Below are positions 1,326 to 40,348 of a stretch of 64,000 nucleotides of DNA, piece after piece; positions within the stretch are counted from its first letter, which is position 1, and each line of letters opens with the position of its first letter. The notes beneath the pieces are model-generated. The model was not told where the DNA came from. It saw nothing but the letters and a program-made list of their open reading frames with translations, and ran no database searches. Position numbers and translations under genes: made by a program. This stretch comes from Erythrobacter sp. Alg231-14. GTDB lineage: Bacteria > Pseudomonadota > Alphaproteobacteria > Sphingomonadales > Sphingomonadaceae. The stretch is taken from positions 2,728,001-2,792,000 of the forward strand of contig NZ_LT702999.1 of NCBI RefSeq assembly GCF_900149685.1, read 5' to 3'.

Positions 1326-1410
1326 TGGTGCCCCTGGCCCGACTCGAACGGGCACTCCGTTAGGAATTCGATTTTGAGTCGAACGCGTCTACCAATTCCA
1401 CCACAGGGGC
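1326..1410 (-). tRNA. tRNA-Leu (anticodon CAA)
   Basis: Read on the minus strand, the seven-base acceptor arms GCCCCTG and CAGGGGC pair. The anticodon loop is CTCAAAA with anticodon CAA. There is a long variable arm typical of leucine tRNA, a T-loop TTCGAGT, and an encoded CCA at 1326-1328. It decodes UUG, a leucine codon that looks heavily used in this window. Confidence 0.96.
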
Positions 1411-1461: not shown

Positions 1462-2280
1462 TCAGCGCAAACTTCCTGCCAAAATTTTATGCATCCGGGA
1501 ATGAAGCGCATCATTTGCAGCCAAAATCTGCTTTGAATGCACCGGATTTGACCGCCCGCGATAGTCGCTGACAAAGCCGCCAGCTTCGCGAACAAGCAGG
1601 CAACCCGCGGCAGTATCCCAGTCGTTGAGCCCGCTTTCCCAATAGCCGTCAAACCGTCCCTGAGCCACATAGGCCAGATCTAGCGATGCCGCGCCAAGAC
1701 GGCGAATGCCAGCGACTTCGGGTCCGATTGCACCGAAAATACGGCTCCATTCGGCAAAGTCGCCATGACCAGCATAGGGAATACCCGTGGCAATCAATGC
1801 ATCGGACATGTGCCGCCGCGCTGACACGCGCAGACGCGCATCCTGCAACCACGCACCGCGCGATTTTTCTGCCCAATAGGTCTGGTCGTTCACGGGGTGA
1901 TAAATCACCGCGCCCGACACTTCGTGCCAACCTGTTCGATCAAGCTTGGGTTCTTGCACCGCGATGCTGATCGCGAAATGCGGGATGCCGTGGGCAAAGT
2001 TGTTTGCACCGTCCAGCGGGCTGATAATCCAGCGCGGCATATCCGGCGAACCTTCGATAATGCCCGCTTCTTCCAACACAAATCCCCAATCAGGGCGTGC
2101 GTTCAAAAGCTCATCATACAAAATCCGCTCAGAGCGCATTTGCGCCTTAGCGACGAAATCCGCAGGGCCGTTGCGGCTCACCTGCAAATGTTCAACTTCG
2201 CCAAAGTCGCGGCGCAAACGCCCGCCCGCTTTGCGCGCGGCGCGTTCCATCACGCGGATCAATCCTGAAAACATCGACAT
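1462..2280 (-). CDS. Inositol-monophosphatase-family protein with degenerate active site
   Basis: A 272-residue protein of the IMPase/SuhB/CysQ fold. The family needs metal-binding acidic residues; in human IMPase these are Asp47, Glu70, Asp90, Asp93 and Asp220, with Thr95 nearby. Here the segment ADFVAKAQ has Gln47 where Asp is expected. The signature usually written DPLDGT reads SPLDGAN, so the first Asp is Ser87 and the Thr is Ala92. Glu70-Glu71, Asp90 (second Asp of the signature) and the C-terminal WDTAAG are kept. The paralogue at 39545-40348 has the full canonical set. The protein may therefore be inactive as a phosphatase or have changed role (inference). It lies downstream of the EF-P gene on the same strand, 6 bases apart, so the two may be cotranscribed. 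Confidence 0.85.
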   Translation of the reverse strand: MSMFSGLIRVMERAARKAGGRLRRDFGEVEHLQVSRNGPADFVAKAQMRSERILYDELLNARPDWGFVLEEAGIIEGSPDMPRWIISPLDGANNFAHGIPHFAISIAVQEPKLDRTGWHEVSGAVIYHPVNDQTYWAEKSRGAWLQDARLRVSARRHMSDALIATGIPYAGHGDFAEWSRIFGAIGPEVAGIRRLGAASLDLAYVAQGRFDGYWESGLNDWDTAAGCLLVREAGGFVSDYRGRSNPVHSKQILAANDALHSRMHKILAGSLR

Positions 2281-2286
2281 GTGCGC

Positions 2287-2850
2287 TTAGCCCGCCTTGC
2301 CGACATAGGTTTGCTCATACACATCAACGATGATGCGTGTGCCGCTGCCGATATGCGGCGGAACCATAATGCGAACGCCATTGTCCAGAACGGCCGGCTT
2401 GTAGCTGGAAGAAGCGGTCTGTCCCTTAACGACCGCGTCGGCTTCGACGATTTCGGCTTCGATTTGTTGCGGCAATTGCACGCTGATGGGTTTTTCTTCC
2501 CAAAGCTCAAGCATGACCTGCATACCGTCTTGAAGGAATGGACGCGCATCACCGAGCAGATCGGATGGCAGCATGATTTGTTCGTAATTCACCTGATCCA
2601 TAAAGACGAGCATGTCGCCGTCTTCGTAAAGGAATTGGTAGTCCGCTGTTTCCAGACGCACTTTTTCGACTGTGTCGGCGCTGCGGAACCGCACATTGGT
2701 TTTGCGGCCATCTTGCAGGTTCTTCATTTCGACCTGCATGTATGCCCCGCCCTTGCCGGGTTGAGTGTGTTGAATCTTGGCGACTTTCCAGATGCCTTTT
2801 TCATACTCAATGATGTTGCCGGGACGAATGTCGACGCCGCTGATCTTCAT
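2287..2850 (-). CDS. efp: Translation elongation factor P
   Basis: A 187-residue cytoplasmic factor that helps ribosomes past polyproline stretches. The N-terminal KOW-like domain begins [16 protein letters not shown], and the modifiable loop reads PGKGGAY with Lys33 at the position modified in other EF-P proteins. Two OB-fold domains follow, ending [18 protein letters not shown]. The open frame extends further upstream, but family length and the MKIS start fix the start at 2850. Six bases separate its stop from the start of the IMPase-like gene, suggesting one transcript. No modifying enzyme gene (epmA/epmB) is seen in this window. Confidence 0.97.
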
Positions 2851-38321: not shown

Positions 38322-39548
38322 ATGGAACTCACTCAATCCCCCCTTGCCTGCCCATTTCCCGATATGCCTACGATCGCCGGCGTAGAATTGCGCGTGGCGC
38401 GGGCCCACTACAAAGAATGGGATCGCGCCGATTTGACCTTTATCAAGGTTGATGCAGACACCAGCGTGGCGGGCGTATTCACGCAAAGCGCCTGTGCATC
38501 GACCGAAGTCGAAATGGGCCGCGAACAAGTGAAGCGCGGGACGGCGCGCGCTTTGATCGTGAATGCAGGCAATTCCAACGCCTTCACCGGGTATCGCGGG
38601 CGCGAAGCGGTTGAAGAGATCATGGCGCAAGTTGGTGACGCGTTGAATTGTGATCCATACGACGTTCTGGTGTCATCGACCGGGGTGATCGGCGTCCCCC
38701 TACCCAAGGATAAGGCCCGCGCAGGCGTCGCCGCCGCGTTGAGCGCCGATCTATGCGGATGGGAAGACGCAGCGGACGCCATCGCCACAACCGACACATT
38801 TGCGAAGGGCGCGCATTGCGCCGCAATGATTGGGGACACCCGCGTCGAATTATGCGGGATCATCAAGGGGTCCGGCATGATCGCCCCCGATATGGCCACC
38901 ATGCTGGGCTATATTTTCACCGATGCGCGGGTCGCACCCGATTTCTTGCAAGAATTGCTGTCACAAGCGAACTTGCAAACCTTTAGCTGCATCACCGTTG
39001 ATGGCGACACCTCGACCAGCGACACCGTCCTGGCCTTTGCCACCGGGAAAGCGGATCATGCGACGATTACCGGTTGGGACAGCCCCGGCGCGGATGCCTT
39101 TGCTGCGGCGCTGACTGACATCACCCGGCAACTGGCGCAATTGGTCGTGCGCGATGGCGAAGGGGCGACAAAATTCATTGCGATCAGAGTGTCGGGCGCG
39201 GTCGACAATGGCAGCGCGCGCCGCGTGGGATTGGCCGTGGCCAACTCACCCTTGGTCAAAACCGCTATCGCTGGAGCCGATGCAAATTGGGGCCGCGTTG
39301 TGATGGCCGTGGGCAAAGCGGGCGAACCGGCGGATCGGGACAAGCTGTCCATCGCTTTTGGCGGCGTCTGGGCCGCGCGCAATGGCGTTCCAGTCGAAGA
39401 CTACGACGAAGCCCCCGTGGCCCAACATTTACAGGGGGACGACATCGATTTGGCCGTGGATATGGGCATGGGCGACGGACAATCGACCGTGTGGACATGC
39501 GACCTGACCCACGGATACATCTCCATCAATGCGGATTACAGATCATGA
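38322..39548 (+). CDS. argJ: Bifunctional glutamate N-acetyltransferase / amino-acid acetyltransferase
   Basis: A 408-residue enzyme of arginine biosynthesis that recycles the acetyl group from acetylornithine. The self-cleavage site and nucleophile threonine lie in AIATTDTFAKGA. Other hallmarks are IVNAGNSNAFTG, GSGMIAPDMATMLGY, TVDGDTSTSDT and DGEGATKFI. Its stop overlaps the start of the inositol monophosphatase gene in an ATGA. Other arg genes are not in the window. Confidence 0.97.
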   Translation: MELTQSPLACPFPDMPTIAGVELRVARAHYKEWDRADLTFIKVDADTSVAGVFTQSACASTEVEMGREQVKRGTARALIVNAGNSNAFTGYRGREAVEEIMAQVGDALNCDPYDVLVSSTGVIGVPLPKDKARAGVAAALSADLCGWEDAADAIATTDTFAKGAHCAAMIGDTRVELCGIIKGSGMIAPDMATMLGYIFTDARVAPDFLQELLSQANLQTFSCITVDGDTSTSDTVLAFATGKADHATITGWDSPGADAFAAALTDITRQLAQLVVRDGEGATKFIAIRVSGAVDNGSARRVGLAVANSPLVKTAIAGADANWGRVVMAVGKAGEPADRDKLSIAFGGVWAARNGVPVEDYDEAPVAQHLQGDDIDLAVDMGMGDGQSTVWTCDLTHGYISINADYRS

Positions 39549-40348
39549 GTGAGCTTAGTGCGTTAGACGCCGAAATCCGGGACTTGATGCGCTTTGCCGC
39601 GCGCGGTTCGATGTTGCCGCGTTTTCAGGCGCTGGCCGACGACGAGATCGAGATGAAGGGCGTCGATGATCCCGTCACCGTGGTCGATCGCGAAGTCGAA
39701 GCGTTCTTAACCGAAGCCTTGACCAAACTGTCTCCCGGCGTTGCCATCGTTGGCGAAGAGGCGGTGGCCGAAGACAAATCCGTCCTTGATCACTTGTCTG
39801 AGCAATGCTGGATCATAGACCCGCTTGATGGGACAGCGAATTTCACTGAAGGCAAAGAACCGTTCGGGATCATCATCGCCCTTGCCGACGGGGGAAAGGC
39901 GGTTGCGGGATGGATGTATGACCCAATCACCGATCGTTTGTGCCACACAAAGGCCGGCGAAGGCGCGTTTGTGAATGGCGAACGGATCACCGCGAAAACC
40001 ACGGGCCAGACGCCCCCAATCACCGCGATCGCCAGAACGTTCTTAACCGAAGAGCAAAATGCAATGGTGGATGCCAAAATTGCACCGCATTACAGCTTGG
40101 TCGACATTCCGCGCTGTGCGGCGGAACAATATCCGCGTTTGGCATTGGGAATAAACGACGTGTCGAGTTTTAAGCGGACATTGGCATGGGATCACGCCGC
40201 TGGCGTTCTGTGGCTGAACGAAGCGGGCGGGAAAGCGGCGCGTTTGGACGGCAGCGAATATCGTGTCGACGAACACGGCCTGCCCGGCCTTGTCGGCGCA
40301 TCTTGTCCAAAAATCTGGGATGAATTTGTCGCACGCGTCCTAAAATAG
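39545..40348 (+). CDS. Inositol-monophosphatase-family phosphatase (canonical active site)
   Basis: A 267-residue metal-dependent phosphatase. All key residues are present: Asp48 in [14 protein letters not shown] at 70-72, the signature [10 protein letters not shown] (Asp92, Asp95, Thr97), and AWDHAAG near the C-terminus. Members act on inositol phosphate, histidinol phosphate or PAP. Coupling with argJ and the amino-acid context make histidinol-phosphatase (HisN type) a reasonable guess, but this is not proven. It starts within the argJ stop (4-base overlap). Confidence 0.9.

What the first reader, a model, noticed from the sequence alone, without database searches (positions are those of the whole stretch)
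1462..2280. Inositol-monophosphatase homologue with three active-site substitutions
The protein has Gln47 for the expected Asp, Ser87 for the first Asp of DPLDGT, and Ala92 for the Thr. The rest of the fold markers (Glu70-Glu71, Asp90, WDTAAG) remain. A second family member in the same window (39545-40348) keeps every residue. The gene is intact and sits 6 bases behind efp, so it looks maintained. It may be a pseudoenzyme with a binding or regulatory role; SuhB in E. coli has a non-enzymatic role in rRNA transcription, which makes the efp link worth a look.
Basis: partly seen in the sequence, partly recalled or inferred. Interest (0 to 1): 0.55.

Follow-up and report, generated by a model that had tools for sequence, protein, structure and literature searches.

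The report
Naturally catalytically-dead SuhB in marine Erythrobacter
In a small group of Erythrobacter species a protein that looks like the phosphatase SuhB has lost key metal-binding residues of its active site yet is still kept under strong selection, which suggests that its lasting job is not its enzyme activity but probably helping RNA polymerase make ribosomal RNA.

Summary
Q47, S87, A92 replace D, D, T, kept in 104 of 108 genus orthologues; the same four genomes differ at all three (Q/S/A in two, Q/N/V in two). D47 and D87 are kept in 68 of 68 class sequences read. Clade mate G047 keeps these three but has WHTAAG for WDTAAG. Of 36 columns invariant in 186 comparison sequences only D47 and D87 changed in the four. 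It is not decay: omega on their tip branches is 0.044, omega = 1 is rejected (LRT 401.7); an earlier burst accompanied the changes. Sixteen of 16 genomes have five family members and none has PF07994 (inositol-phosphate synthase). The equivalent of E. coli SuhB R184 is kept, NusA has C-terminal repeats, five of five rRNA leaders read carry GCTCTTTGACA. Best reading: a natural SuhB pseudoenzyme that keeps the Nus-factor (rRNA transcription) role. Loss of catalysis and the Nus role are inferred, not measured; G047's place inside the clade is unresolved. New variant of a known kind.

The parts
1462..2280 (-). suhB-like gene, 272 aa, IMPase fold with Q47, S87, A92, N37 in place of D, D, T, K
   Evidence: (PF00459, 181.5 bits)
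2281..2286 (-). 6-base gap between efp stop and suhB start
   Evidence: gap 5, 8 and 8 bases in the other three clade genomes
2287..2850 (-). efp, elongation factor P, upstream neighbour
   Evidence: TIGR00038 229.7 bits, cut-off 185.8
1326..1410 (-). tRNA-Leu (CAA) directly downstream of the suhB-like gene; neighbour, no functional link claimed
39545..40348 (+). paralogue of the same family (PF00459, 267 aa) with its catalytic residues; comparison, not part of the system

Best explanation
It is the SuhB orthologue of this Erythrobacter, turned into a pseudoenzyme. Loss of Asp87 (human IMPase Asp90, shared ligand of Mg-I and Mg-II), of Asp47 and of Thr92 (human Thr95) should abolish three-metal phosphatase catalysis (inferred from family knowledge). 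The protein is nevertheless conserved because its selected function is non-catalytic. By homology that is most likely the Nus-factor role: SuhB binds NusA and the leader RNA and brings NusB/NusE into the rRNA transcription complex, protecting rRNA transcription and folding. Shown: the substitutions, their sharing by a clade, renewed purifying selection, no extra paralogue and no PF07994 in the genomes checked, a boxA-like leader motif, NusA C-terminal repeats, the R184 equivalent kept. Inferred: no phosphatase activity; NusA and RNA binding.
For: Same four genomes of 108 changed at all three positions; D47, E70, D87, D90, D222 kept in 68 of 68 class sequences read; of 36 columns invariant in 186 sequences only D47 and D87 changed. 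Four tip branches omega 0.044 against 0.056 elsewhere (p 0.25), omega = 1 rejected, LRT 401.7; G000+G151 tips 0.028. Burst on stem branches c,a,b: omega 0.22, p 1.6e-8, versus 0.023 for efp on the same branches. Five PF00459 members in each of 16 genomes, clade or not; PF07994 in 0 of 16. R194, which I map to E. coli R184 from the alignment and numbering offset, is 108 of 108. NusA has nusA_Cterm_rpt over its cut-off, three stretches. GCTCTTTGACA in 5 of 5 rRNA leaders read. PMC6614801 states that the phosphatase activity of E. coli SuhB is not needed to relieve suhB mutant effects (passage); PMC4954947 gives the metal ligands (passages).
Against: No assay; no usable structure (AlphaFold mean pLDDT 53.9). 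E70, D90 and D222 remain, so residual metal binding or weak activity is possible. The E. coli NusA-AR2 contact residues K251/L254 lie past the end of the alignment and could not be mapped. Pfam's helix-hairpin-helix hit in NusA is below its cut-off (19 versus 27 bits). Rate elevation is not wholly suhB-specific: branch d is raised in efp (0.21) and nusA (0.22) too, nusA is raised on c,a,b (0.09, p 0.003), and under the species topology four housekeeping genes are raised about twofold on a,b (0.088 versus 0.042) against about tenfold in suhB (0.44 versus 0.045). The NusA, boxA and R194 points hold for canonical relatives as well and do not single out the clade.
Confidence: 0.62

Rival explanations
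1. Relaxed selection: the gene lost its use and is a pseudogene in the making that is still open by chance.
For: Changes sit at the active site and follow different routes (S/A versus N/V; H222 in G047); stem omega near 1 on branch c.
Against: Open frame without stops in all four genomes; tip omega 0.044, omega = 1 rejected with LRT 401.7; NG86 dS 0.93 between G000 and G151 with omega 0.023; 34 of 36 invariant columns kept.
Confidence: 0.05
2. Altered enzyme: the pocket still works with another metal set or a different substrate.
For: E70, D90, E215 are kept in 108 of 108 and D222 in the four; the fold is intact by profile score.
Against: The ligand shared by Mg-I and Mg-II is gone in all four genomes with no fixed substitute (S or N), as are D47 and T92; G047 loses a different ligand. 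A new activity would be expected to fix one new pocket.
Confidence: 0.13
3. Non-catalytic role other than rRNA transcription, for example a ligand sensor or a regulator of another PF00459 enzyme or of EF-P.
For: efp is the upstream neighbour within 400 bases in 104 of 108 genus members, 14 of 14 order-level and 21 of 28 class-level loci looked at; four PF00459 paralogues are present.
Against: The efp link is as strong in canonical orthologues, so it does not track the loss; the closest solved chains are SuhB proteins, two of them named Nus factor.
Confidence: 0.2

Closest known systems
Escherichia coli SuhB (PDB 6ib7, 6tqn; PMC6614801, PMC4807359)
   Same: IMPase fold (182 bits); R184 equivalent kept; rRNA leader boxA-like motif and NusA C-terminal repeats present in this genome
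   Different: E. coli SuhB is an active phosphatase with D, D, T at the three positions; here these are Q, S, A
PDB 3luz, 'extragenic suppressor protein suhB' (from Bartonella, name recalled)
   Same: closest solved chain by sequence, 252 bits over residues 5-267
   Different: has D, D and T at the three positions (alignment)
Canonical Erythrobacter SuhB beside efp (e.g. G038, G009)
   Same: 86% and 85% identity, same neighbourhood
   Different: catalytic residues complete
Mycobacterium tuberculosis SuhB (PMC2080633, abstract and passages)
   Same: same fold family; Lys in the mobile loop, DPXDGT and GEEG motifs make up its active site
   Different: its dimerisation is promoted by Mg, linked there to loading of a complete active site; this protein lacks parts of that site
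Pseudophosphatases such as STYX (PMC8907265, search listing only)
   Same: phosphatase fold kept without catalytic residues
   Different: unrelated protein-phosphatase family

Membership tests
Inositol monophosphatase superfamily (PF00459) | profile match over the curated cut-off | tested here: met
   181.5 bits, cut-off 27
Catalytically active IMPase | metal ligands and catalytic residues: E70, D90, D93, D220, plus D47 and T95 (recalled), human numbering | tested here: not met
   D47, D90 and T95 equivalents replaced by Q, S, A; E70, D93, D220 equivalents kept
Catalytically active IMPase | Mg-dependent phosphatase activity | not testable with these tools
   needs purified protein
SuhB orthologue group | one close orthologue per genome in a conserved neighbourhood, best match SuhB | tested here: met
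   next paralogue in this genome 28% identity; efp; best solved chain named suhB
SuhB orthologue group | NCBIfam PRK10757 equivalog cut-off | tested here: inconclusive
   182.6 of 332 bits, but two canonical orthologues also fail, 200.9 and 209.4
SuhB Nus factor | Arg184 of E. coli SuhB (site of the studied R184A variant; its importance for interactions is recalled) | tested here: met
   maps to R194 by the alignment and its numbering offset; 108 of 108
SuhB Nus factor | NusA with AR2-type C-terminal domain | tested here: inconclusive
   nusA_Cterm_rpt 78.7 bits over cut-off 48.15, three stretches; HHH_5 below cut-off
SuhB Nus factor | boxA in the rRNA leader | tested here: met
   GCTCTTTGACA conserved in 5 of 5 leaders read, seen in the alignment; that it is boxA is by likeness to the E. 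coli motif, recalled
SuhB Nus factor | binding to NusA, leader RNA and RNA polymerase; suhB complementation | not testable with these tools
   bench work

The most novel reading that the evidence does not exclude
The clade made SuhB a metal-independent Nus factor: neutralising the acidic metal pocket (D47Q with D87S or N; separately D222H in G047) mimics the Mg-loaded state, orders the mobile loop and fixes the dimer, so that rRNA antitermination no longer depends on Mg or phosphorylated ligands.
Probability: 0.2. Interest if true: 0.72.

Novelty: new variant of a known kind. Interest (0 to 1): 0.55.

Why it matters
SuhB is known both as a phosphatase and as an rRNA transcription factor, and whether the enzyme activity matters to the second role is open (PMC4807359, passage). 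A lineage that lost the active site but kept the protein under strong selection would be a natural separation-of-function experiment, and gives a ready-made test protein.

Tried and rejected
Sequencing or strain artefact: rejected, four genomes share the changes in two versions. Decay: rejected by omega. Replacement by an extra copy: rejected, five PF00459 members in each of 16 genomes; in this genome HisN is a separate gene, 282.7 bits over cut-off 275.15. Inositol synthesis by the known route: PF07994 in 0 of 16 genomes, the control ringing in 5 of 14 genomes and over the cut-off in 3; the library names PF07994 NAD_binding_5, and that it marks inositol-1-phosphate synthase is recalled. AlphaFold model on 26 close sequences: mean pLDDT 53.9, not used, no fold search run. 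A first tree run failed on thread number; the gene tree holds 104 of 108 genus members plus two outgroups, because the coding sequences of G053, G056, G145 and G013 could not be cut to the query frame. A first concatenated tree probably took a wrong rpoB frame for G018 (very long branch) and was redone with another choice of frame. Some likelihood-ratio values are slightly negative, from incomplete optimisation. My first NusA script found nothing because of a wrong motif, redone. My motif search for boxA with a leading T matched in one of five leaders only; the conserved stretch was then read from the alignment. Paper searches: none of the listed titles reports a SuhB or IMPase pseudoenzyme, but the lists were capped: 20 of 69 papers listed; 20 of 232; 15 of 603; 10 of 1,144; 10 of 10; one search found 0 papers with both 'inositol monophosphatase' and 'pseudoenzyme'. 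The library holds only open-licence papers.

Full report
What is there. The frame at 1462-2280 is on the minus strand and encodes 272 aa; efp ends six bases upstream (minus 2287-2850) and a tRNA-Leu lies downstream at 1326-1410. The protein matches PF00459 with 181.5 bits. Its best solved relatives are SuhB proteins: 3luz at 252 bits, then 8wdq and 9j90 ('Nus factor SuhB') at 186 bits and E. coli 6tqn/6ib7 at 182 bits. Q47, S87, A92 and N37 stand where the family has D, D, T and K.

How rare it is. In 108 genus orthologues (114 genomes searched, 108 with a match at 1e-100; the six without are 67-88% complete) position 47 is D in 104 and Q in 4, position 87 is D in 104, S in 2 and N in 2, position 92 is T in 104, A in 2 and V in 2; E70, E71, D90, R193 and R194 are 108 of 108. 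The four are the same at all three positions: G000 (this genome), G151 (96% identity; the matching public record is an uncultured Erythrobacter, isolate 4-2072), G149 and G030. Position 222 (WDTAAG) is D in 106, H in G047 and E in G102. The 14 order-level orthologues read, of 39 order-level genomes, are all canonical at 47, 70, 87, 90, 92 and 222. In 68 class-level sequences read D47, E70, D87, D90 and D222 are 68 of 68 and T92 is 67 of 68. These 68 come from 336 genomes with a match (387 searched): 28 best ones not yet held and 40 that I picked from the printed rows, so weaker matches were not read.

Phylogeny. In the suhB tree the four are one clade (support 100) with G047 as sister (100); in a 16-genome suhB tree the supports are 96 and 95. 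In a four-gene tree (rpoB, gyrB, efp, nusA; 14 genomes) the five genomes are one clade (96), but G047 falls with G030 and G149 at 78. Single genes disagree: rpoB gives the five at 80, gyrB at 54, efp does not recover them, nusA gives 74 for the five and 52 for G047 with G030 and G149. So the loss belongs to this clade, but whether G047 split first is unresolved; if G047 is truly nested, D47Q arose twice or suhB recombined.

Selection. A codon model written here, on 13 genomes with the suhB topology, gives one omega of 0.054; all branches inside the four-genome clade together give 0.065, not different from the rest. The four tip branches have 0.044, and omega = 1 is rejected (LRT 401.7); the G000 and G151 tips have 0.028. 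The branches on which the changes fell (c, a, b) have 0.22 (p 1.6e-8), branch c alone about 1.0, while efp on the same branches has 0.023 and no signal. Results against a clean story: branch d is raised in suhB, efp and nusA alike, and nusA (8 genomes) is raised on c,a,b (0.09, p 0.003). With the species topology (9 genomes) housekeeping genes rise about twofold on a and b and suhB about tenfold. A burst of change followed by renewed constraint is what a move from enzyme to pseudoenzyme would leave.

Where the changes fell. Of 36 columns invariant in 186 comparison sequences (104 genus, 14 order, 68 class), only D47 and D87 changed in the four; 34 were kept. The comparison set includes G047 and G102, so column 222 is not among the 36. 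In the wider set of 69 columns conserved in at least 97%, seven changed: 24, 37, 41, 46, 47, 87, 92. In human IMPase the equivalent of D87 (Asp90) binds both Mg-I and Mg-II (PMC4954947, passages); the lysine equivalent to K37 stabilises the third metal (PMC2080633, passages). That D47 and T92 act in catalysis is recalled family knowledge, apart from Thr109 (human 95) being named at the substrate site.

What it does. Five PF00459 members occur in each of 16 genomes, clade members or not, so no spare copy took over. PF07994, which I recall as the inositol-phosphate synthase domain, is absent in 16 of 16, so inositol synthesis by the known route is probably not the function in this group. PMC6614801 (abstract, passages, section 18) shows SuhB binding NusA AR2 and rRNA leader RNA and needed to integrate NusB/E, and states that its phosphatase activity is not required for relief of suhB mutant effects. 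PMC4807359 (passages) notes no obvious metabolic need for the activity in E. coli. The work of Chen and Roberts that it cites was not read. In G000 NusA carries three C-terminal repeat stretches, and GCTCTTTGACA, which I take for boxA from memory of the E. coli motif, is conserved in the five leaders read; of eight genomes searched, the other three gave no whole 16S match. E. coli R184 maps to R194, kept in 108 of 108. A non-catalytic Nus-factor role is therefore the best account, by homology and not by test.

Limits. No activity, binding or structure was measured. The AlphaFold model was poor. G047 and G102 rest on one genome each.

Noticed in passing
L007 (G047), suhB residue 222: Another genome of the clade keeps D47, D87, T92 but has His for the metal-binding Asp of WDTAAG and Asn for Lys37: probably a second route to an inactive site.
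   Followed up: partly
L045/L303 (G102), suhB residue 222: WETAAG instead of WDTAAG in an otherwise canonical orthologue.
   Followed up: no
L252 (G174), suhB residue 92: DPLDGM for DPLDGT in a class-level orthologue, the only change at this position among 68 read.
   Followed up: no
nusA of the five-genome clade (L217, L219, L222, L223, L224): nusA also shows raised omega on the stem branches of the clade (0.09 on c,a,b; 0.22 on d): a possible co-change with suhB or a general effect on short inner branches.
   Followed up: partly
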